From contig BBYL01000030.1 of the NCBI GenBank assembly GCA_001570385.1, forward strand, positions 1-64,000: a stretch of DNA of 64,000 nt, given 5' to 3'. Source of the DNA: Microtetraspora glauca. Lineage in GTDB: Bacteria; Actinomycetota; Actinomycetes; Streptosporangiales; Streptosporangiaceae. Each line of letters begins with the position of its first letter. Position 1 is the first letter of the stretch. Positions 1,804 through 61,464 of the stretch are shown piece by piece. Both the position numbers and the translations under genes were made by a program. The notes under the pieces are model-generated. The model did no database searches. It saw only the letters and a list, made by a program, of their open reading frames with translations, and had not been told where the DNA came from.

Positions 1804-4134
<2,331 letters not shown>

Positions 4135-4271
4135 TCACCCGCGAGCATCACTGACAAAGTCGCGAACTACCACACCACCCTGCCCTTTCTGCCATGCCTA
4201 ATATCAGAAGATATGAGGGATTAATTACGCTTTAGCGGCTTCTGCGTCGCCCGGACGGTCCAGAACGGCCG

Positions 4272-8616: not shown

Positions 8617-10970
8617 TCCGCGTCTCCTTCCGCCCGTTCCCGGCTGTGCGCCGCCAGGCAGGCGGTGAGCAGGACGCGCACCGCCTCGTCGTGCAGCTCC
8701 GTGCGCAGCGCGGCGGCGCCGTCGGCGGTCACGGTGAGCCTCTCCTCGGGCAGGCCGAGCATGGTCCAGATCCGATCGGGATGGTCGAGCAGATCGGCCA
8801 GCGTCTGCGCCTTCTTTCTCGGCCAGGACGGGCGACCTGCCTTGATCCGGGTGAGCCAGGCGAGCCGGTTGCGGGCTCTTTCCATCGAGGGCTCCCTGAC
8901 GACCTCGCGCAGCCCGTTGAGCTGGGTGGGAGTCACCTCGACCGGCAGGATCTCCGCACGTCGGTCGCGGGCCGCCATCACGGCTTCGCAGGTCCGGTGG
9001 ATCTCCACGCGCCAGGCCGCACGTTCGAAGATCCTCCCTTCGGCGTGGCCGTCCTCGCCCTGCATGATCGGCTCGGGCGACACGTCCGACGCCGGCTCGC
9101 CATCGGGAACGCCTTGGGCAGGCATGTCGCCGACGCTCCGAAGCAGCAGGTCATGATCGATCTCGACCTGTCCGAAGCCCTCGGCGCGACGCTCCCCCAT
9201 CCCGGCGGCGCGTACCTCGTCCAGAACCTCAGGGGGAATAGGACCGCCGGAAACCTCAAAGGTGAGGCAACTCCCTGCGGCGAGGCCGTACAGGGTGGGT
9301 CGAGGCAGCCCCCAGCCCCGGTGCCAGCTCTCCGTCCTGTGCGCACCGAGCGCAACGGCGATGCGGCCGTCCTGCTGCTCGGTCACCGGACTCAGGGTCA
9401 CTCCGGATGCACCCGCTCTTGCGAGGGCCTGCTCCAGTGCCCGCCCGACGTCGCCGGAGTCGGTGCTGAATCTCAGTCTGCTGTCCCTGACCAGCAGCTC
9501 CGAAAGCAGCCATACGCGAAGAAGGCTCCCTTCCCCATGTGCGCCGCTGGGCGTGGCGCTGTGGCCTTCCTCCGTAGAGGACCCACTCGACATTCCACGC
9601 ATGCTCTTGGGAGAACCGCTCGGCATGACGCCCGGACGTGCTTCTACCCGCACCTGGCCGTAGTCGTCCTTCGCTGACCGGCCGACCCGCCACCGTCCGG
9701 TCAGCCGCTTCTGCCAGCCCGGCTCCAGCAGGCCCGCTCGCACCCGTACCTCGGCGCGGAGCACTGATCCGGCGGCCAGTGCCTTGTAGATGTAGACCCC
9801 GCCGACGTCCCGGCTCGGCCGTTGGATGTCGTCCCGGATGGTGTTGTGCATGCGAAGGGTGAAGTCCGGGCTGACGACCGTACCCGCCTCCTCGCCCTCC
9901 GGGACGACATGGCCTTCCCGGTACGACTTGCCCACAGCCGCGTCTCCGGCCACCCGGTTTCCTGCGACGACGCCCTTGGTCCCCTTCGCGTGCACGAACG
10001 CCTTGGGGACGGGCAGGGTTCGCACTCCGCCGCGTGACTGCGGGGTGGCGGCCGTGACAAGGAGGTCTCCCGTACGGACGAGAGCGTGTGCCGGTCCCCC
10101 GAGCCGCCTGGCCACCTCTGGCATCAGGCACCAGCCGGGGATGAACGCCTCACCCCGGACCAGGTTGCCCTGGATGGTGGCGGCGGCGAGGACCGGCTGC
10201 TCGACGGTGATGACCAATTCCGCGCATTCCCACTCACGGCCGCCCGGTACGGGAACCGGGGCCGGGCGATCGGCCACGCGGTACGGCATGGCCGCGGGAG
10301 GTGGTGCGATGTCCGCCCGGGCGAGCACGGCGAAGTCGGGCTCCACGCCCCGCAGCGTCAGCCGGCAGCGGCCGGAGCCGCGACGCCGCTTGCCCCCGAT
10401 CCGTTCCAGCAACCGCGCGCCCGCCGCCAGCAGGCCCACGGCGGCATGCCGCTGATCCTGATCCAGCTCGTCGAAACCTCGGATCCGCGCGCGGCCGGTC
10501 AGCGTGACACCTGCCCTGGCCATCTCCTCGAACCGCAGCATCCCGGCCTCGGCGGTGCCCGTCCTCGGATCGATCGCCACTCCCGGCTTGCGGAACGTCG
10601 CGGCCCAGGCCACCTCCGGACGGGTACGCAGCAACTCGGGAAGCCGACCCGGCAGACGCAAGGCCCCGTCAAGAGCCAGGGCCGCGGGCCGCACGGCATG
10701 GCGGCGGTCGGCGCTGTACTGGCCGCCGAACAGAAAGTCCAGCCAGTCGTGCCAGATACCGGAAGGGCCGCTGTCGAGCGCGTGCGCCGCCAGCTCGCAG
10801 GAGTCCCGCCAGACGCCGATCAGGGTCTTCGCGGGGACGATCGGCGCGGCGGGCGCCGTCGAGGCGTCTCCAGCCTCCCGCTGGACGAGCCGGTCGGCGT
10901 AGCCGGGGACTCCGGTACCGGTGCCAACCCTCCAGTCGCTGAGCATGAGCAGTTCGAGTTCGACATTCAT
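8613..10970 (-). CDS. Cas7-5-11-like fusion RAMP protein (Csx10-related), type III-D
   Basis: A 785-residue multi-domain protein. The N-terminal RAMP unit contains LSDWRVGTGTGVPGYADRL (residues 10-28), with Asp26 in the loop where Cas7 ribonuclease aspartates sit, and IVPAKTLIGVWRDSCE near 44-59. A second RAMP unit starts near residue 245 (LVITVEQPVLAAATIQGN, then FIPGWCLMPEVARRLGG) and closes with a glycine-rich stretch GMGERRAEGFGQVEID near 600. It resembles the Cas5-type Csx10. From about residue 610 to the end the sequence is helical and charged, suiting a fused Cas11-like small subunit. No separate cas11 gene is present. This is the layout of the Cas7-5-11 fusion of III-Dv. Domain borders are my estimates. 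Confidence 0.7.
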   Translation of the reverse strand: MNVELELLMLSDWRVGTGTGVPGYADRLVQREAGDASTAPAAPIVPAKTLIGVWRDSCELAAHALDSGPSGIWHDWLDFLFGGQYSADRRHAVRPAALALDGALRLPGRLPELLRTRPEVAWAATFRKPGVAIDPRTGTAEAGMLRFEEMARAGVTLTGRARIRGFDELDQDQRHAAVGLLAAGARLLERIGGKRRRGSGRCRLTLRGVEPDFAVLARADIAPPPAAMPYRVADRPAPVPVPGGREWECAELVITVEQPVLAAATIQGNLVRGEAFIPGWCLMPEVARRLGGPAHALVRTGDLLVTAATPQSRGGVRTLPVPKAFVHAKGTKGVVAGNRVAGDAAVGKSYREGHVVPEGEEAGTVVSPDFTLRMHNTIRDDIQRPSRDVGGVYIYKALAAGSVLRAEVRVRAGLLEPGWQKRLTGRWRVGRSAKDDYGQVRVEARPGVMPSGSPKSMRGMSSGSSTEEGHSATPSGAHGEGSLLRVWLLSELLVRDSRLRFSTDSGDVGRALEQALARAGASGVTLSPVTEQQDGRIAVALGAHRTESWHRGWGLPRPTLYGLAAGSCLTFEVSGGPIPPEVLDEVRAAGMGERRAEGFGQVEIDHDLLLRSVGDMPAQGVPDGEPASDVSPEPIMQGEDGHAEGRIFERAAWRVEIHRTCEAVMAARDRRAEILPVEVTPTQLNGLREVVREPSMERARNRLAWLTRIKAGRPSWPRKKAQTLADLLDHPDRIWTMLGLPEERLTVTADGAAALRTELHDEAVRVLLTACLAAHSRERAEGDAE

Positions 10971-12646
10971 CCGGCTGCTCCCCGAATGGGCAGGAAGGGC
11001 AGCGCGGCCACGGCGTCCATGAGACCCGTCACCATCCTCTCCTCATGACCGCCCCGGTCGATGTGATCACTGCGGTCGATGTGATTGACAAGGTCACCGT
11101 GGTCGGCGTGATCGGCATGGGCGGCGTGATCGCTGTGATCGCGCCAGACCAGCCGCCCAGGGTCCCCTTCCAACTCGGCCAGCGCCGCCAACCGGGCCGG
11201 GGATCCGCTGAAGCGCGTGCGGAGCAAGGTGAACCGGGCGTCCGCCACCTCCGCGCCCAGGCACAGCCCCTCGCGGAGCTCGTGCACCGCACCGCTCGGG
11301 ATGAGCAGCTCACCCGATTCGGCATCCGTTCGCTGGAGCGCGTCCACCCGGCGCAGGAGGTCCGACCAGCGCCGCCGTTCCGCGCGGGGGTCGTCGCTTC
11401 CCCGCCCCACCAGGTACGGCGACGCCGACGCGACGGTCCCGCCCGCCAGCGTGGACGAGCTCCGGATCCTCGCGAGATCGGGTGCCGAGCTCTCGAACAG
11501 CACGGTGAACGCCAGCGCCGACCCCCACGCCTTCACCTGCTTGGCCTCGGCGGTGATCAGCTCCTCGGCGAGGTCATAGGCGAACCTGAACGGGTAGTTC
11601 CGCTTGACGATCGCCACCCCGGCCGCCGCCCCCAGCCAGGGGCGGTCGGCTTTGTCGAGGATCGGGCGGAGCAGGGCATCGCTCGCGGTCTCCTCTTCGA
11701 ACGCTTCCAGGTAATGCCGGGCGAACGGCAGGGCCACGGCGCCCTCGCAGAGTACGGTCAGGTCGTCACCGCCGAGCACCAGAGGTAGGACGGGAGGCAT
11801 GCCGTTCACCGTGACGGACGCGTGTTCGGCCGCGGTCCGGGTCAATGCCTTATGGAAGGCCCTTTTCGCGCAGTCATCGACCCCCAGGGACAGCGTGCGC
11901 AGGGCTTCCGTGTACTTTCCGTCCCGGTTGACGGCATCCGCCACGTCGAGCCTGTCGCCGAGGCCGCGGAAGATGTCGCCGAACCCGTTGCCGTCCGCGT
12001 GCACCACCGCCACCCAGTCGGCTTCAAGCCCCAGCCTGTCGACGATCTTTCTCGTCGTGGCGACGTCGGTCTGCGCGTCCTCGGCCAGGCGGCTGAGCGC
12101 GTGCTGGAAGTGGTCGAGCTTGGCCATGGACGCCGCCGACCTGGTTCTGCTGGGCTCGTCCCGCCCTTCACGATGGAGTGACATCGCCGGCAGTCCCGTG
12201 GAGGCACAGTCCTCGACCAGCGGCAGCCGCAGGAACCTCGCCTGCGGGCCCGGCCTGGACTCGCGCACCGCCGCGAGTTCGGTGCGTGCCGCCGAGATGT
12301 CGTGCGCGAGCGGCCCCACCGCCTCGACCACCACGCCGCAGACGTCCAGACCGGGGGCCTCGCGCAGGGCTCGGCCGGTCAGCTCGGTCACCAGGCTCCG
12401 GCCGGCGTCCTTGTCCCGAACCAGCACGGTGATGGCTCCCGCCCCGGCGGTGATCAGTTCCGCGGCGTGGCCGTCCTTGATGCGCCAGCTCCTGTCGAAC
12501 CCGGGGAACACGCGGGCCATCGCCTCGTCGGCCCAGGAGCCGTTGACCTGTGCGATCAGATCCGACGCCCCGACGATCTCCTGCCGTTTGCGCGAGGAGA
12601 AGATGTACCGCTGGTTGCCCGCCGTACCGATCACGACGACGTACAT
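10967..12646 (-). CDS. cas10: Cas10-like protein, HD-less, GGDD cyclase motif intact
   Basis: A 559-residue Cas10, short for the family because it begins directly with the first palm (QRYIFSSRKRQEIVGASDL at residues 12-30) and has no N-terminal HD nuclease. The second palm has VVHADGNGFGDIF near 214-226 and an intact GGDD at 292-295 (LVLGGDDLTVL), so cyclic oligoadenylate synthesis is predicted and ssDNA cleavage is not. Absence of HD is usual for III-D. A histidine/aspartate-rich tract of about 30 residues (roughly 502-534) near the C-terminus is unusual. The gene overlaps cas7-5-11 by four bases and the upstream SAVED-like gene by 16 bases. Confidence 0.9.
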   Translation of the reverse strand: MYVVVIGTAGNQRYIFSSRKRQEIVGASDLIAQVNGSWADEAMARVFPGFDRSWRIKDGHAAELITAGAGAITVLVRDKDAGRSLVTELTGRALREAPGLDVCGVVVEAVGPLAHDISAARTELAAVRESRPGPQARFLRLPLVEDCASTGLPAMSLHREGRDEPSRTRSAASMAKLDHFQHALSRLAEDAQTDVATTRKIVDRLGLEADWVAVVHADGNGFGDIFRGLGDRLDVADAVNRDGKYTEALRTLSLGVDDCAKRAFHKALTRTAAEHASVTVNGMPPVLPLVLGGDDLTVLCEGAVALPFARHYLEAFEEETASDALLRPILDKADRPWLGAAAGVAIVKRNYPFRFAYDLAEELITAEAKQVKAWGSALAFTVLFESSAPDLARIRSSSTLAGGTVASASPYLVGRGSDDPRAERRRWSDLLRRVDALQRTDAESGELLIPSGAVHELREGLCLGAEVADARFTLLRTRFSGSPARLAALAELEGDPGRLVWRDHSDHAAHADHADHGDLVNHIDRSDHIDRGGHEERMVTGLMDAVAALPFLPIRGAAG

Positions 12647-13794
12647 GGCTCTCCTGCCTCATAGGGGTGCGGAACCGGCGTGACCTTGTGACCCATCAAC
12701 CAGCCGAGCGCGAAGGCGACGCTGGCCGGAGCAGTGATGAACAGGCGCGGACACAGGCCGACGTACTCTGGGCGAGCCTCGATCCACGCCGACCACGCCC
12801 CGTAGACGTGCCGGACAACGAGCTCGAAGTCTCCGGTGCTTTCGGGGATGTTGGCCGGGCCGCCGTCGACGACCAGAGCCGCACGGCAGCGCTCCCAGCG
12901 CCCATTGACGTCCAGGCAGCCCTCGCGCGCCGCGCGCAGCGCCTCGGCAACCATCATCGGGTTGTCCGCGAGGTGCACCACAAGCGCGACCGCTCCCCCG
13001 TCCGGCACGTCGCCGAATTCCGGCTCCTCGATCACTGTGGCCAGCTTCGCCGCACGTACGGCCTCCGCAGGGGTCAGTGGATCCTTCAACCGGCCGCTGA
13101 TCCGTACCGCCGTGAAGAAGTCCGTACGGGCGAACTCGGCGCGTTGCGGCAGGACGACATCGGCGATCGCATTGCGATCGTCAGCGGACGCGTCGTCGTG
13201 AGGGGATGCGCCGACGCCGCGCAGCCTCCGGTGCACATTGAACTTGAACCTCGCGCCCAGTTCGAAGGCGTCGGGCAGCGCGGCGTTGACATAGAGCGAC
13301 ACCGGGGTCGAAGGATCGGCCTCGGCCAACTCCGTGAGCCGCACGTTCACCAACTCGCAGGCGAACTCGATGGCGTCCACGCGCGCTTCTCGCGCGGTGG
13401 CCTTCGCCTCCGCGTCGTCTTCCGGCGTCGCCGCGACGATGTCCCGCCGTACGGTGAAGCAGGAGTCATGATGTCGCCTGGCGTGGGCGACGGCAGCGGC
13501 GGCCCACTGGGTGCTCCACGGCGCTCGCCAGTTCGTTCTCGGCAGGGCGATCACGATGCCCACACCTTTGCTGCGCTGCTGCCACAGGTTGATGCCCGCG
13601 AACACCGCCGCCGAGACGACGCACAGCGCGGTGAGGAACCCTCGCTGATCGCCGAGCCAGCTCTTGATCACATCCGGCACCGTGCCGGCGGCGACCGCCG
13701 CCGCGACACCCGCGAGGGCCGCCACCGCCCAGCGGGATGTTCCCTCCACCGCCGTTCTCGCCTTGCCCGTCGTCTGAGCCCGGGAAAGCCCCAT
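12631..13794 (-). CDS. Two-TM protein with a C-terminal SAVED-like domain, candidate cyclic-oligonucleotide effector
   Basis: A 387-residue product from the ATG at 13794, preceded by a purine-rich GGAGAGGA; a longer reading from 13872 would run into the CRISPR trailer region. Two hydrophobic helices lie near residues 22-40 and 53-70, separated by a short polar turn. The following 300 residues resemble a SAVED domain. PVSLYVNAALPDAFELGARF occurs mid-domain, and LFITAPASVAFALGWLMG followed by PVPHPYE lies close to the C-terminus, where SAVED proteins carry the pattern FxAxPxxxAxxLG. TM-SAVED proteins are known in CBASS (Cap14 type). Beside a GGDD Cas10 it would be a membrane effector gated by cyclic oligoadenylate. 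The SAVED call is by eye. Confidence 0.6.
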   Translation of the reverse strand: MGLSRAQTTGKARTAVEGTSRWAVAALAGVAAAVAAGTVPDVIKSWLGDQRGFLTALCVVSAAVFAGINLWQQRSKGVGIVIALPRTNWRAPWSTQWAAAAVAHARRHHDSCFTVRRDIVAATPEDDAEAKATAREARVDAIEFACELVNVRLTELAEADPSTPVSLYVNAALPDAFELGARFKFNVHRRLRGVGASPHDDASADDRNAIADVVLPQRAEFARTDFFTAVRISGRLKDPLTPAEAVRAAKLATVIEEPEFGDVPDGGAVALVVHLADNPMMVAEALRAAREGCLDVNGRWERCRAALVVDGGPANIPESTGDFELVVRHVYGAWSAWIEARPEYVGLCPRLFITAPASVAFALGWLMGHKVTPVPHPYEAGEPCTSS

Positions 13795-13902
13795 CCACTC
13801 GTCCTCTCCGCCCCGTTTTCCACCTTCACCCGACACAGATGGACGACACAAAGAGCGACGAAATGGTAACAAGTAGCAACTTTCGGAGTATTACACGGAG
13901 AT

Positions 13903-16336: not shown

Positions 16337-17766
16337 ACGAACCCGATCCACGGGATGTGGACGCAGGCGATCAGGCGCGGCTCAGGCTGACCGCGCATCC
16401 CCTTCAGCGGATCGGCGCGTACGCCCTGGCGGCCCTGGCCAAGGCGTCATCTGTCGAGGGCCTCACATCAGACGGCTTCGCCACAGCGGTGGAAACGGTG
16501 ACCCGGGACGCGGTTGCCGCTGCCCTCGTGCGTGACACGAAGAGCGACCAGGGGTTCTGGCTCAAGACGAGCATGTCCTTCTTCCCGAACTCGAAGATGA
16601 ACCATCTCAGCAACGCGAAGAAGGACGACCCCACAATCCGTGATGCCGTACGGCGATGGCGTGAGCGTCCGGATCCATCGGCCTGGCCGGAGGCGGCATG
16701 CGTGCTGTGCGGGCGGGACGCGGTGGGGTACTACGGCAAGGTCGACGTCCCCCTGGCGGAAAGCGATCTCTACCGCAACAACACGCCACGCGGGCACGCC
16801 GGGATGGCGCTGTGCTGGCCGTGCCTGTGCAGTTTCTACGCCCTGCCGTACGGCTGCCGCCTGACGGGTGGGCCGTCCACCGCTCTCCACAGCTGGGACG
16901 AGCGATTCATGGCGCGAACGCTGTCCCGTCGAGTCGAGCGCAACCGGCAGTTGATCGCCCTGGGCAGGGCCGACTCCCGCAAGGTGCTCTCGAACGAGGT
17001 GATGGCTCTCCAGGCGTTGCGCCACTACGAGGATCGGCTGACCGCCGGAGTGGAGCTGCTGGTTTTCAGCAACAACAACCGCGGCCAGACGCTGGAGATC
17101 CAGTCACTGGATCGGCCGATCGCCGAATGGTTGCGGCGGTCGTCACGGCCTCCGCGCAAACGCGGCTTCCCGGCGCTGCTCCGCGCCCACGCGACGGGGG
17201 ACCGGCCAGGCGCCCTCGGCCTGGCGCGTAACGCCTTCCGCGCGCCGGAGCAGATCGCCCAGGCGTGCAGCCGATATCTGACCGCGCATCTCGGCCGTGG
17301 CGTGATCCGTACGGACACCGCCGAGCTGGCCGAGCTGTGCTTCTCCTTCGTGATCGAGGTGATGCGAATGAACCAGAACGAGATCGACGAGATCAAGGCC
17401 GCCGGAGCCCAGGTGGCGGCCTGGTTGAACGCGGAGAACTCCGCGGGGCAGCTCCGGGCGTTCAACGCGACGTTGAAGGAACCCAGGCGGATGCGGCATT
17501 GGCTGATGCGCCGCAATGTCGATGCCCTGCTGGACCAGGACAGTGGGATCGGCGGCCCGCTGATCACCGAGAACCAGTTCCGGCTGCTCTTCGACCCCGA
17601 GGTGGAGCAGGCGTGGTTCCACCGGCAACTGCTCATCGTCTCGGTGGTCCAGCGGCTGCACGAGCTGGGATTCACGCCCGCGGATCGGGCCGAGGTCGCC
17701 GCCGCGATGGCGGACGAGGAGAAAGAGCACCCCGAGGACATCGACTACATGAAGGGCGATGAGTGA
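16333..17766 (+). CDS. cas8b: Type I-B Cas8b/Cst1-like large subunit (CXXC-CXXC family)
   Basis: A 477-residue product starting at the ATG overlapping the cas6 stop. The same frame stays open upstream inside cas6, but that part is a shadow. It has the two zinc-binding pairs that define Cst1: CVLC at 123-126 and CWPC at 161-164, with another Cys at 166. The length fits the family. Cas8 is the large Cascade subunit that recognises the PAM and recruits Cas3. The gene overlaps cas7 by eight bases. The CXXC pairs identify the Cst1 branch of subtype I-B. Confidence 0.82.
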   Translation: MNEPDPRDVDAGDQARLRLTAHPLQRIGAYALAALAKASSVEGLTSDGFATAVETVTRDAVAAALVRDTKSDQGFWLKTSMSFFPNSKMNHLSNAKKDDPTIRDAVRRWRERPDPSAWPEAACVLCGRDAVGYYGKVDVPLAESDLYRNNTPRGHAGMALCWPCLCSFYALPYGCRLTGGPSTALHSWDERFMARTLSRRVERNRQLIALGRADSRKVLSNEVMALQALRHYEDRLTAGVELLVFSNNNRGQTLEIQSLDRPIAEWLRRSSRPPRKRGFPALLRAHATGDRPGALGLARNAFRAPEQIAQACSRYLTAHLGRGVIRTDTAELAELCFSFVIEVMRMNQNEIDEIKAAGAQVAAWLNAENSAGQLRAFNATLKEPRRMRHWLMRRNVDALLDQDSGIGGPLITENQFRLLFDPEVEQAWFHRQLLIVSVVQRLHELGFTPADRAEVAAAMADEEKEHPEDIDYMKGDE

Positions 17767-18802
17767 GATGAGCTACCTGGTCGGTAAGGTCGTCCTGGAT
17801 ATTGTGGCCGGCGCGCCGAACAACGGCCTCGGCGAGGACAACGTCGCCACGGTGAAGCAACTGCGCGTCGGGCGTGACACCCATCCGTACGTATCGGCGC
17901 AGGCGTTCCGCCGCTGGCTGCGGGACTCGCTGCCCGCCTCGGAACCGGTCTCACCAGTAGTGCGGTCGGGCAGTGGCCAGAAGCAGCAGGCGTACACGCA
18001 GGGCCGCCCTGACCTGTACCTCGACGACGACCTGTTCGGCTACATGGTCGCGGTCAAGGGCGACAAGACCAAGACGTGCCAGCGGGACACGGTCCTCGCC
18101 ACGGGAACGTTCGTGTCGGTCGCCCCGCGCCGCCCTGAGCGGGACTTCGGGACGATGAGCCGCGGCTTCGCGGCCGGGGAGAACCCGGTGCTGCACGGCC
18201 ACGAGTTCTACAGTGCCGAACTGGCCGGTGACGTGCTGCTCGACCTGGCTCGAATAGGCGTGTTCGAGATCGACGGCGCCGGGTTGAAGATCGCCCTGCC
18301 CGAGCCTGCCGCCAAGGAGGCGGCGGACAACGGAGCCGAGCCGGTCACCTTCCGCGGCTGCTCCGCGCTGCGGCTGACGATCGAGGAGCGACGCCGCCGG
18401 GCCGCTCTGCTGCTGCGCACGCTGACCGCCATACGTGGCGGGGCCAAGCAGTCGATGCACTACGGTGACCGCGCCCCAGCGATCATCCTCCTCGCGCCGG
18501 TGAAAGGCGGGATCAATCCTTTCACCCGAGTTCTCAGTGTCCGGGGCGAGCGCGCGCTGTTCGACGCGGGTGTCCTGCGCGCCGAGATCGAGGCCTGGTC
18601 CGACGAGCTGGACGGGCCGGTGCTGCTCGGTTGGGCGCCGGGCTTCCTCGGCGAACAGCGGGATCGGACCCGCGCGGATCTCGCCGATCTGATCACCGCC
18701 GGAAATCTGGTCATCGACCACCCTCGTGTGCTGCTCGGTGGCTTGGCGGAGCAGATCGAGCGGGGTGAGCGGGACACCTGGTTCGAGGATCCGAAGGCAT
18801 GA
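17759..18802 (+). CDS. cas7: Type I-B Cas7 (Cst2/DevR family)
   Basis: A 347-residue Cascade backbone protein. The N-terminus has LVGKVVLDIVAGAPNNGLGE followed by VKQLRVGRDTHPYVSAQAFR, a pattern of Cst2/DevR-family Cas7 in which the second block precedes the RRWLRD helix. The first ATG (17759) overlaps the cas8 gene by eight bases; ATG 17768 is an alternative start. The product should polymerise along the crRNA in the I-B interference complex. DevR is also the name of the Myxococcus autoregulator homologue, but nothing here suggests a developmental role. Confidence 0.88.
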   Translation: MSEMSYLVGKVVLDIVAGAPNNGLGEDNVATVKQLRVGRDTHPYVSAQAFRRWLRDSLPASEPVSPVVRSGSGQKQQAYTQGRPDLYLDDDLFGYMVAVKGDKTKTCQRDTVLATGTFVSVAPRRPERDFGTMSRGFAAGENPVLHGHEFYSAELAGDVLLDLARIGVFEIDGAGLKIALPEPAAKEAADNGAEPVTFRGCSALRLTIEERRRRAALLLRTLTAIRGGAKQSMHYGDRAPAIILLAPVKGGINPFTRVLSVRGERALFDAGVLRAEIEAWSDELDGPVLLGWAPGFLGEQRDRTRADLADLITAGNLVIDHPRVLLGGLAEQIERGERDTWFEDPKA

Positions 18803-19464
18803 CCACGACCGAGGCGTTGCGAGTGACGGTCACCGCGCCGATCGTCTCCTTCCGCAACCCGCTGTACGCGGGAGTGCAGGTGGCGCTGCCCTGCCCACCG
18901 CCCGCGACCGTGGGCGGCATGCTCGCGGCGGCGGCCGGGGGCTGGCACGCCGTCGATGTGGAGACACGGTTCGCCATGGCCTTCCACGCGCGCGGCAAGG
19001 GAGTCGACCTGGAGACGTACCATCCGCTGGACGCCACGGGTAAGAAGGCCGATCCGACACCTCGCGAACGGGAGTTCCTGGCCGACGTCACCCTCACAGC
19101 CTGGTTCATAGAAGACCTCGACGTGTGGGAGCGCAGGCTCCGCAGGCCGGTCTGGCCGTTGCGTCTGGGCAGGAGCCAGGACCTGGTCGGACTCATGACC
19201 CGCCGCGTCGTCCTTCGCCACGGCCCCGGCCGCCAGCGCGACGCCGTACTTCCAGAGGGGACCACTCCCCTGCCCGCCGGAACGCTGCTGCGGCTGCCGA
19301 CCGCGGTCTCGCTGAACCGGCATCGGACCCGCTGGGACGCTTATCACTTCGACGCGGCCGGCCGAAGTGACGTGATGGTCGCCTCCACCTGGGCGGACGA
19401 GGACGGCAGGGCAGTGGCTCTGCTGCCCCCGGTCCATCCCGAGCAACTCATGGGAAGCGGGTGA
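18799..19464 (+). CDS. cas5: Type I-B Cas5
   Basis: A 221-residue RAMP protein whose ATG overlaps the cas7 stop by four bases. The N-terminal strand LRVTVTAPIVSFRNPLYAG and the following LPCPPPATVGGMLAAAAGGW are typical of Cas5, in which PPATVxGML marks the first helix. Cas5 caps the 5' tag of the crRNA and bridges Cas7 and Cas8. The size matches the Cas5 of I-B systems. Confidence 0.87.
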   Translation: MTTTEALRVTVTAPIVSFRNPLYAGVQVALPCPPPATVGGMLAAAAGGWHAVDVETRFAMAFHARGKGVDLETYHPLDATGKKADPTPREREFLADVTLTAWFIEDLDVWERRLRRPVWPLRLGRSQDLVGLMTRRVVLRHGPGRQRDAVLPEGTTPLPAGTLLRLPTAVSLNRHRTRWDAYHFDAAGRSDVMVASTWADEDGRAVALLPPVHPEQLMGSG

Positions 19465-19465
19465 C

Positions 19466-21802
19466 ATGGAGCTGCGGGACATGCTGGCCAAAAGCAACCC
19501 GGTGGAAAGACTCATCGATCATCTGGCCGCAACCCTGGAGGGCGCCCTCGCACTTCGGCGGCGGGTGGGAGACATCGCCGTTGTGGAGCAGGTAACCCAG
19601 GGCCAGTTCTGGACCGCGGTGTCCTTGGCCGCGCTCTGCCACGACGCCGGGAAGATCCCGGACGGCTTCCAGGCCATGCTCAGGGGAACCACCCAGTCGT
19701 GGGGCGAGCGGCACGAGGTCGTCTCCCTGGGCTTCCTTCCCTGTCTCATCGAGGATGAGCGGCTACTGACCTGGGTCGCTACCGGGGTGGCCACTCACCA
19801 TCGGTCGCTTGAAGGCGGACGCGGTCCAGTGATCAAGCTGTACGGCGGCGCTCCCGACGCGGAGTGGCGCGACCGCCTGCGACCCCTCCCTGACTCCGTC
19901 GCGGTCGAACTCATCGGCTGGCTGGCCCGTACGGCGAAACGGGCCGGGCTCCCGGCGGCCTCCCTCTCGCCGGAGGAACTCGACGTGGTCGGCGAGGCCC
20001 GGCGGATGTTCGACCTGCTGCTGGACAGGTGGGAGCTTCCGGCGCACCCCGACGAAGGTCTCGCGGCGGTTCTTCTGCAGGGTGCCGTCACGCTGGCGGA
20101 CCATGTCTCCTCCGCGCACGGCACTCTCCACACCCGCCAGCCCATCGGCATCCGGTTCCGAGCGCTGTTGGAAAAGGCGTTCACCGAGAAGGGGCAGAGC
20201 CTCCGCCCGCACCAGGCCGAGGCGGCGGAGACAGGTGGCCACCTCCTGCTCCGCGCCCCGACCGGCTCGGGAAAGACGGAGGCCGGACTCCTCTGGGCGG
20301 CGACGCAGGCGGCCGAGATCACCCGTCGTACGGGCGGCGTCCCGAGAGTCTTCTTCACCCTGCCTTATCTCGCGTCCATCAACGCCATGGCCGCACGACT
20401 CGGCGGGCTCCTGGAGGACGACACGCTGGTGGGGGTCATGCACTCACGGGCCGCGTCGTACCACCTGGCGAGGGCCATCTGCCCGGAAGACGGCGAGGAC
20501 GAGCACGCCGAGGCGGCGAAGAAGGCCGTGTCGCGGGCAGCGGCGACCCGGCTGTTCCGGGAGACCGTGCGGGTCGGCACCCCGTACCAGATCCTGCGTG
20601 GCGTGCTGGCGGGACCGGCTCATTCCGGAACACTGATCGACGCCGCGAACTCGGTGTTCGTCCTGGACGAGCTGCACGCCTACGATCCTCGGCGGCTCGG
20701 GTACATCCTCGCGAGCGCCCGGTTGTGGGAACGGCTCGGTGGGCGCCTCACCGTACTGTCGGCCACGCTTCCCGGCGTGCTGGCCCGGCTGTTCCGCGAT
20801 CTGCTCGATCAGGACGTCCGCCTGATCGAAGCCTCCGCCGTTGGCGCGCCGCTTCGGCATCGGCTCGGCCTTCGGGAGCGGCACCTGACCGATCCGGAGT
20901 CGGTCGAGGAGATCCGGAGCAGACTGGCGGCCGGCGATTCGGTGCTCGTCGTCGCCAACAACGTCGCGGACGCCCAGCGTCTGTTCGCCGAACTCGAACC
21001 GGAAGCCGACGCCGCCTTCCTGCTGCACTCGCGGTTCCGCCGAATGGACCGATCAGCTCTGGAGCAGGCCATCGCCGAGCGATTCGGCGTCGGCCGGGAC
21101 CGCCTGCCGGGACTGGTGGTGGCCACCCAGGTCGTCGAAGTGAGCCTGGATGTGGACTTCGACTGCCTGCTCACGTCGGCGGCGCCGTTGGAGGCTCTGT
21201 TACAGCGATTCGGCCGAGTCAACCGGATCGCCGCGCGACCACCCGCTGATGTCATCGTGCACGCGGCCGCCTTCGCTCCGCGGCGCAAGGGAGGCGAGGA
21301 GTTCGCCGACGGCGTCTATCCCAGGACTCCCGTCGAGACCGGCTGGCACATCCTCACCCGTCATGACGGGTGCGCGGTCGACGAGGCGGATGCCCGCCTC
21401 TGGCTCGACGAGGTGTACGACACCGTGTGGGGCCAGGAATGGCATGACGAGGTGCTGCGGCACCAGACGGAATTCACGGAGGCGTTCCTGGGCTTCGCCC
21501 ACCCCTTCGTCAGCCGGGACGAGCTCGCCGAGCGGTTCGACGAGTTGTTCGACGGCACGGAGGCGGTCCTGGACCGGGATCGCGACGCGTACGAGGCGGA
21601 TCTGGCGACCGGCCACAAGGCAGCGGGACGCCTGCTCGCCGAGCGGTACCTGATCCCGATGCCGCACTGGGCCGCTCCCCTCACCACCTGGGAGAAGCGG
21701 CTCGGCGTACGGATCATCGACGCGGAGTACGACGAGCGGCTGGGGCTGGGCGAGGTCCACGGGCGGGTGGCCCAGGTCTACCAGGCGGGTGAGGTGCTGT
21801 GA
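19466..21802 (+). CDS. cas3: Cas3 HD nuclease-helicase
   Basis: A 778-residue single-chain Cas3. The N-terminal HD nuclease shows LAALCHDAGKIPDGFQ (His59-Asp60), His83 and HH at 111-112. The SF2 helicase follows with Walker A APTGSGKTEAG near 262-272, the DELH box near 400-403, SATLP near 432 and motif VI QRFGRVNR near 580. It starts one base after the cas5 stop. It is recruited by Cascade bound to target DNA and degrades it. All key residues are present, so interference should be competent. Confidence 0.95.
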   Translation: MELRDMLAKSNPVERLIDHLAATLEGALALRRRVGDIAVVEQVTQGQFWTAVSLAALCHDAGKIPDGFQAMLRGTTQSWGERHEVVSLGFLPCLIEDERLLTWVATGVATHHRSLEGGRGPVIKLYGGAPDAEWRDRLRPLPDSVAVELIGWLARTAKRAGLPAASLSPEELDVVGEARRMFDLLLDRWELPAHPDEGLAAVLLQGAVTLADHVSSAHGTLHTRQPIGIRFRALLEKAFTEKGQSLRPHQAEAAETGGHLLLRAPTGSGKTEAGLLWAATQAAEITRRTGGVPRVFFTLPYLASINAMAARLGGLLEDDTLVGVMHSRAASYHLARAICPEDGEDEHAEAAKKAVSRAAATRLFRETVRVGTPYQILRGVLAGPAHSGTLIDAANSVFVLDELHAYDPRRLGYILASARLWERLGGRLTVLSATLPGVLARLFRDLLDQDVRLIEASAVGAPLRHRLGLRERHLTDPESVEEIRSRLAAGDSVLVVANNVADAQRLFAELEPEADAAFLLHSRFRRMDRSALEQAIAERFGVGRDRLPGLVVATQVVEVSLDVDFDCLLTSAAPLEALLQRFGRVNRIAARPPADVIVHAAAFAPRRKGGEEFADGVYPRTPVETGWHILTRHDGCAVDEADARLWLDEVYDTVWGQEWHDEVLRHQTEFTEAFLGFAHPFVSRDELAERFDELFDGTEAVLDRDRDAYEADLATGHKAAGRLLAERYLIPMPHWAAPLTTWEKRLGVRIIDAEYDERLGLGEVHGRVAQVYQAGEVL

Positions 21803-22296
21803 TCGGAGCCGAAGACGTGGGCGGGGTGCACATCAAATACCTCTACCACTGCCGTCGCCAGCTCTGGCTCTACGCACGCGGGGTTCGCCCCGAGCATCTC
21901 AACTCCGCGGTGCAGATGGGTGAGGCCGTCCACGAGACCTCCTACACCCGTAGTTCTCCGGTCGATCTCGGCGCCGCCAAGCTGGATCACCTCGACGGAG
22001 CTGCCTGGGTACACGAGGTCAAGTCGTCATCGAAGCCCAGCCAGGCCGACGAGGCACAGGCCATGCACTACTGCTATCGGCTGCATGCCGTCGGCATCGC
22101 CGCCCAAGGCGGGGTCCTGCACTACCCGAAGACCCGCCGGACGCGGCGCCTGCCCTACACCGCAGAGACGGCGAAACAGGCCGAGGCCGACATCGTGGAG
22201 GTGCTGGCCGTGGTCTCCGCGGTCTCCTCACCACCGCTTCTCGCCCGCTCGGCCTGCCGGGGATGCTCCTACATCGACTACTGCTGGAACGAGTAG
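21799..22296 (+). CDS. cas4: Cas4 Fe-S exonuclease
   Basis: A 165-residue protein starting at GTG 21799 and overlapping the cas3 stop (GTGA). One cysteine near residue 18 (YHCRRQLWLY) and a C-terminal cysteine cluster CRGCSYIDYC provide the four ligands of the iron-sulphur cluster. The RecB-like nuclease core shows WVHEVKSSSKP. Cas4 trims prespacers and selects the PAM end during adaptation. Its position directly before cas1 is normal for type I-B. Confidence 0.93.
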   Translation: MIGAEDVGGVHIKYLYHCRRQLWLYARGVRPEHLNSAVQMGEAVHETSYTRSSPVDLGAAKLDHLDGAAWVHEVKSSSKPSQADEAQAMHYCYRLHAVGIAAQGGVLHYPKTRRTRRLPYTAETAKQAEADIVEVLAVVSAVSSPPLLARSACRGCSYIDYCWNE

Positions 22297-23277
22297 ATGC
22301 CCACTGCCTCCCGTACGTACTGGCTCACCACTCCCTGCCGGATCCGGCGCAAGGACCAGTCCCTGCGAATCGAGCGGGTCGACGGCTCGCCCGTGCATAT
22401 CCCGATCACCGATGTCCGCGACATCGTCGCGTGCGAGCCGGTCGACATCAACACCGCCGTGATCAGCCTGCTCAACCAGTACCGCGTCAACGTTCACTTC
22501 CTCAGCCATTACGGCGACTACGCCGGCTCGCTGCTGACCTCCGAGAGCAGCACCTCCGGCCAGACCGTCATCGCCCAGGCCAAGCTGGCCGGCGACCCCG
22601 TGGCCTCCCTGGACGTCGCCCGGACGATCGTGGTGAGTGCGGCGGCGAATGTGCGCCGGGTGATCGATCGCAAGCTGCTCACCCGTCCGATGGCGGTATT
22701 GGAAACCTCCGTCGCCGCATCGTCGACCCGCGAGGAACTCATGGGTGCCGAAGGCACCTTCCGGCGCGCGGCGTGGGCGGTGCTGGACACCCGGCTTCCC
22801 GACTGGCTCCGGCTCGACGGCCGCAGCCGCCGCCCACCGCTCAACGCCGGGAACGCGTTCATCAGCTACGTCAACGGCATCGTCTACGCTCGGCTGCTGT
22901 CGGCGATCCGGCTCACTCCGCTGCACTCCGGGGTGGCCTTCCTGCACAGCACCATGGAACGCCAGCGGCACTCCCTTGTGCTCGACCTCTCCGAGGTGTT
23001 CAAGCCTCTCTTCGCCGAACGGCTGCTGCTCCGGCTCGCCGGGCGCGGCCAACTCAAACCGGTCCATTTCGATGTCGATGTCAACCAAGCGATGCTGAGT
23101 GAATCGGGTCGCAAGCTGGTAGTGCAGACCGTCCGTGACGAATTGGCGGTGACCATTCAACACCGCTCTCTCGGCCGGAACGTGGCATACGACGAGCTGC
23201 TGTATCTCGAAGCCCTCCAGCTCACTCGTACGTGCTTGGAAGGCACGCCGTACAAGCCGTTCAAAATCTGGTGGTGA
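22297..23277 (+). CDS. cas1: Cas1 integrase
   Basis: A 326-residue Cas1 that starts immediately after the cas4 stop. Catalytic residues are in place: Glu152 in ELMGAEGTFRRAAW, His217 in GVAFLHSTMERQ, and the acidic LDLSEVFKP motif near 229-237. It joins Cas2 to insert new spacers next to the leader. Being the only cas1 in the window, it probably serves both arrays and, indirectly, the type III-D effector. Confidence 0.96.
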   Translation: MPTASRTYWLTTPCRIRRKDQSLRIERVDGSPVHIPITDVRDIVACEPVDINTAVISLLNQYRVNVHFLSHYGDYAGSLLTSESSTSGQTVIAQAKLAGDPVASLDVARTIVVSAAANVRRVIDRKLLTRPMAVLETSVAASSTREELMGAEGTFRRAAWAVLDTRLPDWLRLDGRSRRPPLNAGNAFISYVNGIVYARLLSAIRLTPLHSGVAFLHSTMERQRHSLVLDLSEVFKPLFAERLLLRLAGRGQLKPVHFDVDVNQAMLSESGRKLVVQTVRDELAVTIQHRSLGRNVAYDELLYLEALQLTRTCLEGTPYKPFKIWW

Positions 23278-23283
23278 GGTCAC

Positions 23284-23547
23284 GTGTACGTCGTGGTCGT
23301 CTACGACACCCTGGCGAAGCGCAACGCCGCCATCCTGCGACTGTGCCGCCAGTATCTCCACCATGTGCAGCGAAGCGTGTTCGAGGGCGCGCTGAGCCCG
23401 GCACAGCTACGGCGGTTCCGCCACGCGGTCGAGGATGTGATCGACGCCGGATACGACAGCGTGCTCGTCTTCACGTTCCCGCCAGGAACGACTCCGGAAC
23501 GCCAGGAATGGGGCATCGCCCAGCCCGCTCCCAGCGATATTCTCTGA
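23284..23547 (+). CDS. cas2: Cas2
   Basis: An 87-residue protein from GTG 23284, six bases after cas1. The MYVVVVYDTL start with Asp8 and the RRFRHAVEDVI and SVLVFTF segments are typical of the Cas2 ferredoxin-like fold. It is the structural partner of Cas1 and the last gene of the operon, ending 130 bp before array 2. Confidence 0.95.
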   Translation: MYVVVVYDTLAKRNAAILRLCRQYLHHVQRSVFEGALSPAQLRRFRHAVEDVIDAGYDSVLVFTFPPGTTPERQEWGIAQPAPSDIL

Positions 23548-23677: not shown

Positions 23678-24953
23678 GTCCTCATCGCCCCTACGAGGGG
23701 TCGCAACGGTGTGACACACCTGCAAGCGTTCGAGAGGACAAGTCCTCATCGCCCCTACGAGGGGTCGCAACTTCAGGGCGCCATTCTTGAGTGTCAGCTT
23801 GAGCTTTGTCCTCATCGCCCCTACGAGGGGTCGCAACCGGGAGCGGGAGCACTTGGCTTACGATACCCACCAGTCCTCATCGCCCCTACGAGGGGTCGCA
23901 ACGCCTGCCCCGCTTCCGTAGCTTCGTGCGTGAGTACAGTCCTCATCGCCCCTACGAGGGGTCGCAACTGGGGACCGGCGAGCAGGCGCACCCGCGCCCG
24001 CGCGTCCTCATCGCCCCTACGAGGGGTCGCAACAGGCTGAACGGCTCGCCACCCCACAACTGCACCTTGTCCTCATCGCCCCTACGAGGGGTCGCAACGC
24101 TGACGTACTACCGGCTCAACGGATAGGAGGTGAGTCCTCATCGCCCCTACGAGGGGTCGCAACCCGGATAAACCCACATGTCACCGATCCGGTACGCGGT
24201 CCTCATCGCCCCTACGAGGGGTCGCAACGCTCGGTCGGCTGGTGGGCCGCGTACGGCGTGGAGCGTCCTCATCGCCCCTACGAGGGGTCGCAACTTGGGG
24301 TGTGTGCCCTGTTGTGTGGCTAGCGCTAGTCCTCATCGCCCCTACGAGGGGTCGCAACCCGGGCTGCCGGCCGAGGGGGTCCGTCTCCCCCTTGTGTCCT
24401 CATCGCCCCTACGAGGGGTCGCAACCTGCCGCTCTGGTCTCCGAGCTGCCCGGCGTCCGCAGTGTCCTCATCGCCCCTACGAGGGGTCGCAACTGTCGTA
24501 GATGTCCTTGGCGTAGGCGGTGAAGGTCCGGTGTCCTCATCGTCCCTACGAGGGGTCGCAACCCGCGCCCCGTTCGAGTGCATCGGCCGGGTCCACCGTC
24601 CTCATCGCCCCTACGAGGGGTCGCAACGCGATTGTTCATAGCGCGGCTGATCAGGGCGGAAGTCCTCATCGCCCCTACGAGGGGTCGCAACAGGACGGCG
24701 GTCCGGCTCACGCGGCACGCTCCCGGTCCTCATCGCCCCTACGAGGGGTCGCAACTCCCACCAGGCGACGCCAGGCAGGCCGCCATACCTGTGTCCTCAT
24801 CGCCCCTACGAGGGGTCGCAACAGGACGGCGGTCCGGCTCACGCGGCACGCTCCCGGTCCTCATCGGCCCCTACGAGGGGTCGCAACTAGTGCTCGGACG
24901 GCTTTATGACGGCGGTGACGGTGGTCCTCATCGCCCCTACGAGGGGTGGCAAC
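23678..24953 (+). CRISPR. CRISPR array 2 (20 repeats, 19 spacers)
   Basis: Same 30-bp repeat as array 1 in the opposite orientation, beginning GTCCTCATCG and ending GGGGTCGCAAC. Starts: 23678, 23742, 23808, 23873, 23939, 24004, 24069, 24134, 24199, 24265, 24329, 24396, 24464, 24533, 24598, 24662, 24726, 24793, 24857 and 24924. Spacers are 34-39 bp. Old-end repeats are altered: 24533 has a C-to-T change in the stem, 24857 has an extra G (31 bp) and 24924 ends GTGGCAAC. The spacer at 24692-24725 recurs exactly at 24823-24856. The array ends against a broken phosphotransferase gene. Confidence 0.98.
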
Positions 24954-25302
24954 ATCGCTGCACACCGGGGAGCCCGGATGGCGGCTGCTCGACTTCGCCC
25001 GCGCGTTCAACGGCCCCGGCCTGCTCGACCTGGCCTCCTGGCCCGGCACTCTCGAAGCGGCCGATCCCGCACGGGTCGGCGGCTTGATCGACTCCTACAT
25101 AGCGGCCGGCGGCCATCGGGACGCTCAGGCGCGACGCGGCGGGCTGAGCGCCGAAGCTTGGGCCCTGGGCTGGCACCGCGTCTGGATCACCGAATGGTTC
25201 ATGGACCAGGCCGTGCACTGGATCGCCGACCCTGCCACCGACCCGGCCTACCTCAAGGCCGTCCGCCGCCACCTCGCAGACGCCGTACGTTTGCTCGACA
25301 CC
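24954..25302 (+). pseudogene. C-terminal remnant of an aminoglycoside-phosphotransferase-like gene
   Basis: Directly after the last repeat the frame reads SLHTGEPGWRLLDFARAFNG, which fits the region between the catalytic loop and the metal-binding DF-A/G motif of APH-type kinases. A helical C-terminal lobe follows (LLDLASWPGTLEAADPARVG and WITEWFMDQAVHWIADP). The N-terminal lobe and the catalytic HxD loop are missing, replaced by the CRISPR array. The frame has no stop before the next gene. Non-functional. Confidence 0.7.
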
Positions 25303-26661: not shown

Positions 26662-27465
26662 TTACGCAGGCTGTGCGAACGGTCCCGCTGCCAGATCGCA
26701 GGCACAGCAACGTTCGAAGCTGAACGGCTCCACCGCGGCTTGCTCCCAAATTCGCCTGGCGTTTCCATTAGATCCTGGATCGACTAACCGTACTATAACG
26801 AGCGCGACCACGGCTGCAGCCCCTGCCCGATACAGCGCCGAAGCAGCGCTTTGGACGTGTGCGCCGGAGACGAAAAGGTCGTCCAGCAATAGCACCCTCT
26901 CACCATCGATACGACAGGTGGTCTGGAATGCGCGGTCGTCGGACTCTCTAGCGGCAAGAAACGGTGCGCGTCCATAGACAGGCATCAGGATGGTCTTGTG
27001 AAGCTCTTGTAGGGCGGTGACCATTTCGACAACCCGCGCCATGGGGGCTGATTCCTGGGCCTGCCGTTCCAATCGCATGCTGGGGACCGTAGCCACCAGC
27101 GTGAAGCCGCCACCTGCCAGCCTGGCCAGACAGGAGCGGTGAACCTGATAGAAGCGAGCGACTGTGGCAGCCAAGAATATCGTTCGATCCACACTGCTCT
27201 GAGGAGATGGATCTCGGTATCGGGACACAATGTCGTATAGCTGATCTTCTTCCTTGACGCACAAGGAGATGGGGACCACATAATCGGTGTGGCGGTAAAG
27301 CCCCGCCGTGGTTCGACGGCAGCTCAAACAAATAGGATAGGGCTCGCCAGTGGTATAGCAGTCACTTGGCCCCGAGTGGCAGATCCGGCAGACTCCGGGG
27401 CGCGCTGCCGGAACATTCCGATACAGATGGGTGAACCGATCCGTTATCACTCGGGGGTCACCCAT
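26662..27465 (-). CDS. ComF-like phosphoribosyltransferase with N-terminal zinc ribbon
   Basis: A 267-residue protein. The N-terminus has a four-cysteine ribbon (CRICHSG and CLSCRR) as in ComF proteins. The PRTase core follows, with the PRPP-loop-like VLLLDDLFVSGAHVQSAASA near residues 195-214. The loop departs from the usual DD-x-x-TTG-x-T form (FVSGAH), so PRPP binding may be altered. The start codon lies just after the stop of the upstream DprA-like gene, so the two are co-transcribed and probably work together. ComF and DprA are natural-competence partners. Their pairing beside CRISPR arrays suggests a defence role, but this is inference. Confidence 0.75.
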   Translation of the reverse strand: MGDPRVITDRFTHLYRNVPAARPGVCRICHSGPSDCYTTGEPYPICLSCRRTTAGLYRHTDYVVPISLCVKEEDQLYDIVSRYRDPSPQSSVDRTIFLAATVARFYQVHRSCLARLAGGGFTLVATVPSMRLERQAQESAPMARVVEMVTALQELHKTILMPVYGRAPFLAARESDDRAFQTTCRIDGERVLLLDDLFVSGAHVQSAASALYRAGAAAVVALVIVRLVDPGSNGNARRIWEQAAVEPFSFERCCACDLAAGPFAQPA

Positions 27466-27467
27466 AG

Positions 27468-28403
27468 TCAGAATCTGGTTGGTTGACGAGTCACATCTAC
27501 TAGATTGACAGCCTCGATCAACAGATCGTCAATACCCTTAACGACAGTGATCCCTCCCCGGTACGCCAGACGGCGAACCCATAGCTGTTCCTGGTGAAGC
27601 GAATGGGGCACGAACACATGCTTGCCATGATTGAGCGCGATCTCGGCTTGCATAGCCGCTCCACTCCCCTCCTCCCCGTTCAGGATGAAGACGGCTGCAG
27701 CCAATCCGGTGGTCACGATGCGCGATAGCGAGATGGCCGCGGCGGTCGGCTCGGCCGTGGGCCAGAACCGCGAGACCAATACGCCTGCGCGGGCTATCTC
27801 CTTTGCCACAGTTGCGTTCGGTGGCGAATCCATCGGTGCTGTGATGCCGTGAGTCAAGGTCGCGATACTACGGCCGCCGACGGCGAGAACCGATCTATGG
27901 ATAGCGGATTCAATCTCTGACGAGATGCCGGCCACGACGGTGAAGCCCGCCTCGGCCACGGCACGGGCCGCATGACGGGCCCGATCAAGGACTTGCTTGC
28001 CTTCGCCGGCAACGGCAATCGATCGGCGATCGTCACTCATGAACTGCCCGCGCGTCCAGAGGAAGGGCGGGAAGTTGTAAGTGAACTCGAGGTTGCACGG
28101 ATACTCCTGCTCCAGGACAGTGACCAAGTGCACGTCTTGTGCTCGCATCTCAGTGATGAGCGCTTCAGCCCGTGCGAGGTCACCGGGCTGGATCCGGGAG
28201 ACGACAGCAGCGGCGTGAGTGAGCCCGTCCTCGTCCAGGCCGCTGAAGTCCCCCTCCATCAGGCGCAGAGCGCTGCGGCTGGCCTGGATGATGCGAGAAG
28301 TGTGATGCCAAGGCCCAGGGGTGGCCTTGGTAAGCGCCAATACTGCAGCCTGTTCCTTGGCGAATGACATGATCTTCACCAGCCCGACGTTCGGATCCGA
28401 CAT
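27468..28403 (-). CDS. DprA/SMF-like Rossmann-fold protein
   Basis: A 311-residue protein (start 28403; ATG 28370 is possible). After a helical N-terminus and PPFLWTRGQF it has a DprA-type Rossmann core: IAVAGEGKQVLDRARHAARA, then GFTVVAGISSEIESAIHRS and GGRSIATLTHGI, close to the DprA signature SGxAxGID-xxAH. It lacks the usual Arg-Gly-Ile-Asp wording (SSEIESAIH). The C-terminal part has AVFILNGEEGSGAAMQAEIA and GKHVFVPHSL, the second nucleotide-fold half. It is shorter than housekeeping DprA and lacks the C-terminal winged helix. It stands directly before the PRTase gene. Confidence 0.75.
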   Translation of the reverse strand: MSDPNVGLVKIMSFAKEQAAVLALTKATPGPWHHTSRIIQASRSALRLMEGDFSGLDEDGLTHAAAVVSRIQPGDLARAEALITEMRAQDVHLVTVLEQEYPCNLEFTYNFPPFLWTRGQFMSDDRRSIAVAGEGKQVLDRARHAARAVAEAGFTVVAGISSEIESAIHRSVLAVGGRSIATLTHGITAPMDSPPNATVAKEIARAGVLVSRFWPTAEPTAAAISLSRIVTTGLAAAVFILNGEEGSGAAMQAEIALNHGKHVFVPHSLHQEQLWVRRLAYRGGITVVKGIDDLLIEAVNLVDVTRQPTRF

Positions 28404-28644: not shown

Positions 28645-28866
28645 TCAGCTCTTGTGCGAGGTAGGAGGGTCGACGCCGAGGAGCTTGAGGAGCTCAGCCG
28701 TGGGGACCAGATAGGCGACGCCGACACGGATGACCCGGCACGGGAACTCGCCTTTCTTGGCCAGCTCGTACGCCTTGGTCCGGCCCAGCCCCAGCGCCCG
28801 AGCGGCGGTGAGCAGATCGACGGTGGCCGGCAGCTCGTGCAGCTCCGCCAGGGTGAAACCCTTCAT
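28645..28866 (-). CDS. Excisionase-like helix-turn-helix protein
   Basis: A 73-residue protein with ATG at 28866 behind a strong GGAGGA. It has a MerR-type/excisionase helix-turn-helix: VDLLTAARALGLGRTKAYEL, then KKGEFPCRVIRVG and YLVPTAELLKLLG. Such proteins act as excisionases or regulators in actinobacterial integrative elements. It overlaps the upstream cell-wall hydrolase gene by four bases, so it belongs to the transfer module. Confidence 0.75.
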   Translation of the reverse strand: MKGFTLAELHELPATVDLLTAARALGLGRTKAYELAKKGEFPCRVIRVGVAYLVPTAELLKLLGVDPPTSHKS

Positions 28867-61312: not shown

Positions 61313-61464
61313 GCCGCGCGCGTCGTACTTAGTGACCTGGACGATCCGGCCGCCCGCCGGGGAGGTCTGCTGAGACTCGAGGTCGCGTCCGAACCCGTCG
61401 AGGAACGAATAGGCCGTGGACCACTTGGCCGAACTCCCCGTACCCGACAGCAGTTTCTGGCTGG

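What the first reader, a model, noticed from the sequence alone, without database searches (positions are those of the whole stretch)
26662..28403. DprA-like plus ComF-like PRTase pair as a candidate defence module
The two genes are separated by two bases only, and neither looks like its housekeeping competence homologue: the DprA motif is altered and its C-terminal domain is missing, and the PRPP loop is unusual. They sit between CRISPR arrays and a conjugative element. I recall DprA-PRTase pairs being proposed as conflict systems in comparative genomics, but could not check this.
Basis: partly seen in the sequence, partly recalled or inferred. Interest (0 to 1): 0.6.

Follow-up and report, generated by a model that had tools for sequence, protein, structure and literature searches.

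The report
Actinobacterial DprA–phosphoribosyltransferase toxin–antitoxin-like pair
Two adjacent genes in an actinobacterium encode a cut-down relative of the DNA-uptake protein DprA and a phosphoribosyltransferase enzyme; together they look like a mobile phage-defence pair of a type already known from E. coli (ShosTA and RqlHI), but in a branch whose DprA-like partner has lost the residue that contacts DNA in its relatives.

Summary
A DprA-like gene (27468-28403, -) lies two bases upstream of a ComF-like PRTase gene (26662-27465, -), between a type I-B CRISPR array and conjugation genes. The host has a separate housekeeping dprA and a separate comF. The pair is absent from three congeners and patchy in the family (29 of 341 genomes). 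It is one of a broad actinobacterial set of DprA-PRTase pairs: 65 of 76 related PRTases have a DprA directly upstream, and two temperate Gordonia phages carry the pair. Structure models match solved ShosA and, more weakly, ShosT and ComF. I read it as a toxin-antitoxin-like abortive defence module that works like ShosTA/RqlHI; toxicity and defence are inferred from those relatives and were not tested here. PADLOC scores do not separate it from housekeeping homologues. What is new is the Streptosporangiaceae branch: its DprA has lost the ssDNA-contact arginine and the SGxAxGID, YP and FxxRN motifs, while the PRTase keeps its acidic pair in an altered PRPP loop. In this branch PRTases also persist without DprA on several separate lineages, which argues against a simple lethal toxin.

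The parts
27468..28403 (-). DprA-like gene (311 aa; the homologous region starts at the ATG at 28370): N-terminal helical domain plus DprA Rossmann domain, no C-terminal winged helix; predicted antitoxin or sensor
26662..27465 (-). ComF-like PRTase gene (267 aa): zinc ribbon plus PRTase fold; predicted toxin or effector
26848..26895 (-). PRPP-binding loop VLLLDDLFVSGAHVQS (residues 191-206); D196, G201 and Q205 invariant in 55 aligned sequences
27319..27390 (-). Zinc-ribbon cysteines C26, C29, C46, C49 of the PRTase, invariant in 55 aligned sequences
27894..27932 (-). Degenerate SGxAxGIDxxxH motif of the DprA-like protein (AGISSEIESAIHR)
27999..28001 (-). Codon 135 (Gly) of the DprA-like protein, at the position of the ssDNA-contact arginine (SpDprA R115, HpDprA R52)
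23678..24963 (+). Neighbour, not part of the pair: 20-repeat CRISPR array next to type I-B cas genes
28645..28860 (-). Neighbour, not part of the pair: small HTH_17 (excisionase-type) gene upstream of the pair, first of the conjugative-element genes

Best explanation
A two-gene, toxin-antitoxin-like abortive defence module of the DprA-PRTase class (it works like ShosTA and RqlHI). Shown here: gene pairing, folds, separate phylogeny from the housekeeping genes, patchy distribution, carriage by phages. Inferred: the PRTase binds PRPP and, once released or activated during infection, disturbs nucleotide metabolism and the genome, stopping growth of the infected cell. [quoted passage not shown] Because the DNA-contact arginine and pocket motifs are lost in this branch, I expect control by protein-protein contact rather than by ssDNA binding. 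The physiological trigger is unknown.
For: 65 of 76 related PRTases have a DprA directly upstream on the same strand (alignment-based scan). DprA and PRTase distance matrices agree (r = 0.80; 0 of 1000 permutations as high). DprA model (pLDDT 94.7) matches solved ShosA 8zva (Z 25.2) and DprAs (Z 26-28). PRTase model (pLDDT 93.5) matches ComF 7p0h (Z 9.4) and ShosT with phosphate or PRPP-Mg (Z 9.3, 8.9). All 60 relatives searched have a housekeeping-type DprA, and the window's lineage is separate from it in the tree. Pair carried by Gordonia phages Vasanti and Bosnia beside repressor and integrase genes and, in other forms, by phages Mana and PfAC02a. BREX BrxC/PglY, CARF-HEPN or IIG R-M genes lie next to some pairs, and the window itself has III-D and I-B CRISPR. 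Pair G+C is 60.3% against 67.4% for the window. RqlH toxicity needs its PRPP-pocket residues and RqlI binds its PRTase domain (PMC4670107); an E. coli DprA-PRTase pair protects against T7 and lambda (PMC9122126); ShosT is reported to disturb purine metabolism with T7 Gp0.7 as trigger (review PMC12593503).
Against: No experiment on any member of this branch was found. In near-complete Nonomuraea-like genomes G221, G223, G226 and G233 the PRTase persists with no full DprA partner found anywhere, and the acidic pair is broken in only one such lineage; that is unexpected if the PRTase is lethal without its partner. PADLOC ShosA/ShosT hits are not specific: the host's housekeeping DprA and ComF score higher than the pair does. 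Defence neighbours were counted without a background control.
Confidence: 0.6

Rival explanations
1. Sensor-effector rather than toxin-antitoxin: the DprA-like protein senses infection and switches on an otherwise quiet PRTase, so an orphaned PRTase is harmless and drifts.
For: Orphan PRTases on several separate lineages, most with an intact acidic pair, and no partner elsewhere in four near-complete genomes. Orphan pairs have somewhat higher dN/dS (0.35-0.45) than most paired ones (0.23-0.30, one at 0.39). Activation of the PRTase by DprA was suggested for the E. coli pair (PMC9122126).
Against: RqlH and ShosT, the tested relatives, are toxic without their partner (PMC4670107; review PMC12593503). 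The DprA here has lost the known ssDNA-contact residue, so its sensing surface is not evident.
Confidence: 0.25
2. An accessory DNA-transfer or establishment function of the conjugative element or prophages (DprA and ComF reused for incoming ssDNA), not defence.
For: The pair lies 241 bp downstream of conjugative-element genes on the same strand, and both proteins are homologous to competence proteins.
Against: The ssDNA-contact arginine and pocket motifs are lost in this branch. Relatives sit in phages, beside BREX genes and in chromosomal sites where no conjugation genes were recognised.
Confidence: 0.12
3. A decaying remnant: the DprA-like gene is degenerate because the pair no longer works.
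For: DprA signature motifs are lost, and DprA stubs are seen in related loci.
Against: Both window frames are intact. The branch is monophyletic (100/100) with its own conserved residues in many species, and paired PRTases show dN/dS of 0.23-0.39. The motif loss predates the branch's diversification.
Confidence: 0.05

Closest known systems
ShosTA (including the compact E. coli P2-hotspot DprA-PRTase pair)
   Same: DprA-like and PRTase proteins encoded side by side; DprA-like partner with the same fold (8zva, Z 25.2); carried by phages; a compact PRTase form exists (PADLOC ShosT model of 237 aa).
   Different: PfAC02a ShosT carries an N-terminal HAD-type domain and its gene comes first, whereas here a zinc-ribbon PRTase comes second. 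The DprA-like protein here has lost the DNA-contact arginine and pocket motifs. Monophyly with ShosA is not resolved.
RqlHI / PsyrTA
   Same: DprA-homologous partner plus a PRTase domain; the PRTase is the toxic part in RqlH and is bound by RqlI.
   Different: The toxin there is a RecQ-like helicase fused to the PRTase, and RqlI has a C-terminal HTH; neither is present here.
Housekeeping DprA and ComF
   Same: Same folds; ComF also has a zinc finger plus PRTase domain.
   Different: The host keeps both elsewhere. The DprA here lacks the C-terminal domain and the ssDNA-contact residue and falls outside the housekeeping clade; here the two genes are adjacent and patchily distributed.

Membership tests
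ShosTA | Adjacent DprA-like and PRTase genes | tested here: met
   65 of 76 relatives
ShosTA | DprA-like partner with the ShosA fold | tested here: met
   8zva TM 0.69, Z 25.2; the fold is shared with housekeeping DprA
ShosTA | PRTase specifically ShosT-like | tested here: inconclusive
   ShosT Z 9.3 ties with ComF Z 9.4; hhalign to PfAC02a ShosT 2.8e-6 against host ComF 1.5e-6
ShosTA | Specific profile match (PADLOC ShosA/ShosT) | tested here: inconclusive
   Matches at 83 and 21 bits, but the host's housekeeping DprA and ComF score 165 and 23 bits
ShosTA | Common ancestry with ShosA apart from housekeeping DprA | tested here: inconclusive
   Deep forks unresolved in the tree; long branches for the ShosA and Mana rows
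ShosTA | HAD-PRTase toxin encoded first | tested here: not met
   No HAD domain and DprA first; compact DprA-first forms exist, so this feature is not universal in the class
ShosTA | Toxicity, neutralisation by the partner, phage protection | not testable with these tools
   needs expression and phage assays
RqlHI / PsyrTA | RecQ-like helicase fused to the PRTase | tested here: not met
   267-aa protein, no helicase domain
RqlHI / PsyrTA | DprA-like partner with C-terminal HTH | tested here: not met
   Model ends with the Rossmann domain and one helix
Housekeeping DprA | Equivalog score and placement in the housekeeping clade | tested here: not met
   97.5 of 191 bits; separate clade
Housekeeping DprA | Conserved ssDNA-contact arginine (SpDprA R115) | tested here: not met
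   Gly in the window; Arg in 49 of 49 canonical pair DprAs
Housekeeping ComF | Zinc finger plus PRTase with acidic pair | tested here: met
Housekeeping ComF | Housekeeping comF locus of the genome | tested here: not met
   comF lies at G000:C7 beside hpf-like and lpqB-like genes, named by eye

The most novel reading that the evidence does not exclude
In the Streptosporangiaceae branch the DprA-like partner has become a DNA-independent regulator: it no longer uses the DprA ssDNA/nucleotide pocket and controls a PRTase with a remodelled PRPP loop purely by protein contact. This would be a distinct mode of control in the DprA-PRTase class, and the PRTase can outlive its partner because it is not lethal by itself.
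Probability: 0.3. Interest if true: 0.55.

Novelty: new variant of a known kind. Interest (0 to 1): 0.4.

Why it matters
DprA-PRTase pairs are recognised anti-phage systems whose control step is not settled: whether the DprA-like partner binds DNA and recruits repair, or binds and blocks the toxin. A natural branch that keeps the pairing while losing the DNA-contact residue, with close relatives that keep it and others that have lost DprA altogether, gives a ready comparative series to test this. It also shows that compact zinc-ribbon PRTase versions are widespread in Actinobacteria and carried by temperate phages.

Tried and rejected
The single-sequence scan of genome contigs found nothing; the alignment scan worked. 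No relatives of the PRTase in viral contigs or plasmids. PADLOC ShosTA hits were first taken as membership evidence and then downgraded, because housekeeping DprA and ComF score as well or better. The weak second comF hit in the genome (G000:C20) reads as PRPP synthetase, not ComF. Acinetobacter 'phage' DprA (H11) is a chromosomal-type housekeeping smf beside yrdC. No tRNA in the window, so element ends could not be placed. No sigma-70-type promoter match upstream. The primary ShosTA structure paper and the Kimelman and Sberro papers were not found in the library, so their content is cited through PMC12593503, PMC9122126 and PDB titles. The idea that a small ORF upstream of the L027 PRTase is a HEPN partner gave no Pfam hit.

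Full report
What is there. Two genes on the minus strand, a DprA-like gene (27468-28403, 311 aa) and a PRTase gene (26662-27465, 267 aa), are separated by two bases. The first matches the DprA family (Pfam 1.6e-25) but reaches only half of the dprA equivalog cut-off. The second matches PRTase families only around its PRPP loop. On one side lie a 20-repeat CRISPR array and type I-B cas genes, with a type III-D locus beyond; on the other lie excisionase-type HTH, NlpC/P60 and TraG/T4CP genes of a conjugative element. Pair G+C is 60.3% against 67.4% for the window; about 3% of windows of that size are as low.

It is not the housekeeping copy. The same genome has a DprA scoring 224.8 bits on another contig (91 bits for the window gene), and a comF between lpqB-like and hpf-like genes (neighbours named by eye). 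All 60 relatives searched have a housekeeping-type DprA. In a 52-row tree the window DprA lies in a 10-row branch with 100/100 support, next to two paired DprAs with canonical motifs, and outside the actinobacterial housekeeping clade (99/99).

Distribution. Three congeners lack the PRTase. In the family, 29 of 341 genomes have a match at E <= 1e-20; where named, close carriers include Nonomuraea, Microtetraspora, Sphaerisporangium and Spongiactinospora, i.e. Streptosporangiaceae. An alignment-based scan of genome contigs gave 76 related PRTases across Actinobacteria; 65 have a DprA directly upstream on the same strand, 64 of them full length. The scan pattern was the PRPP loop, so this sample is of PRTases with that loop. 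DprA and PRTase distances correlate (r = 0.80; 0 of 1000 permutations), as expected for genes that travel together. Gordonia phages Vasanti and Bosnia carry the same gene order near repressor and integrase genes; Burkholderia phage Mana and Pseudomonas phage PfAC02a carry other DprA-PRTase forms. Some chromosomal pairs adjoin BrxC/PglY, a CARF-HEPN protein or a type IIG enzyme; no background control was made for this.

Structure. AlphaFold2 models from 55-row alignments have mean pLDDT 93.5 (PRTase) and 94.7 (DprA). The DprA-like model matches R. palustris and S. pneumoniae DprA (Z 28.1, 26.0) and E. coli ShosA (8zva, Z 25.2). The PRTase model matches H. pylori ComF (Z 9.4), ShosT with phosphate or PRPP-Mg (Z 9.3, 8.9) and, lower, many PRTases. 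The PRTase keeps the acidic pair D195-D196 and G201, and four zinc-ribbon cysteines are invariant in 55 aligned sequences.

What is special in this branch. In 49 canonical pair DprAs the arginine equivalent to SpDprA R115 (HpDprA R52), which contributes to ssDNA binding (PMC4066776), is always present; in the six sampled members of the window's branch it is Gly, His (two), Arg, Glu or Asp, and Gly in the window. The SGxAxGID, YPxxN and FxxRN motifs are lost throughout this branch. Its PRTases have DDLFVSGAHVQ or close variants instead of DDTWTTGARxQ. The branch has its own conserved positions and dN/dS mostly of 0.23-0.30 between paired PRTases (one pair 0.39), so it looks maintained.

Orphan PRTases. 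In several genomes of the branch the DprA is absent or reduced to a C-terminal stub while the PRTase frame is intact. The tree needs at least four changes between paired and orphan states; one of these involves two metagenome-assembled fragments and may not be a loss. G221, G223, G226 and G233 have no such DprA anywhere; G231 has a second, paired copy. The second acidic residue is changed only in G226, G231 and G233 (DE or DG); G227, G219, G221 and G223 keep DD. Orphan dN/dS is 0.35-0.45 (simple NG86 estimate, few pairs). These facts fit a PRTase that is not lethal on its own in these hosts, or one disabled by changes I cannot recognise. RqlH without RqlI is likewise reported in many Gram-positive bacteria (PMC4670107).

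How it probably works. From relatives: in RqlHI the PRTase domain is responsible for toxicity, PRPP-pocket mutants lose most of it, and RqlI binds that domain (PMC4670107); ShosT is reported to disturb purine metabolism, and ShosA to bind DNA, with T7 Gp0.7 as trigger (PMC12593503); a DprA-PRTase pair protects E. coli against T7 and lambda (PMC9122126). I infer that the window PRTase is a PRPP-using effector kept in check by its DprA-like partner, and that in this branch control runs through protein contact. The catalytic product, the trigger and actual defence are not shown.

Membership. It works like ShosTA/RqlHI but I do not file it as ShosTA: gene order and toxin architecture differ from the HAD-PRTase form, common ancestry with ShosA is unresolved, and profile scores are not specific, since the host's housekeeping DprA and ComF score 165 and 23 bits against the same models. 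It is not RqlHI/PsyrTA (no helicase). I call it a new variant of the known DprA-PRTase class.

Noticed in passing
window 1804-13836 and 17759-23547: Two CRISPR-Cas loci: type III-D-like (Cas10, Csm3/Cas7, Cas5, CorA-like, CARF-HEPN protein) and type I-B (Cas7b, Cas5b, Cas3b, Cas1b); frames at about 14.2-14.8 kb carry the same repeat, so a second array lies there.
   Followed up: partly
window 53756-63999: Two very long minus-strand frames (2517 and 844+ aa) that may be an RHS/YD-repeat-type protein; not examined.
   Followed up: no
L126, L127, L054, L052/L135, L139, L132, L140, L142: Orphan PRTases in Nonomuraea-like genomes, some with a C-terminal DprA stub still upstream; in L132/L140/L142 the second acidic residue of the PRPP loop is changed.
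   Followed up: partly
L037:8360-9448 and L041:8252-9175: Solitary PRTases of the same family directly upstream of what reads by eye as endonuclease III (nth), in a similar gene order in two genomes; possibly a domesticated version.
   Followed up: no
L181 (CAKLQH020000035.1): A record labelled Acinetobacter phage carries a chromosomal-type housekeeping dprA (smf) between LysM and yrdC genes, so the phage label looks doubtful.
   Followed up: partly
L027:1152-1604: Small unassigned ORF just upstream of a close PRTase homologue that lacks DprA; no Pfam hit.
   Followed up: partly
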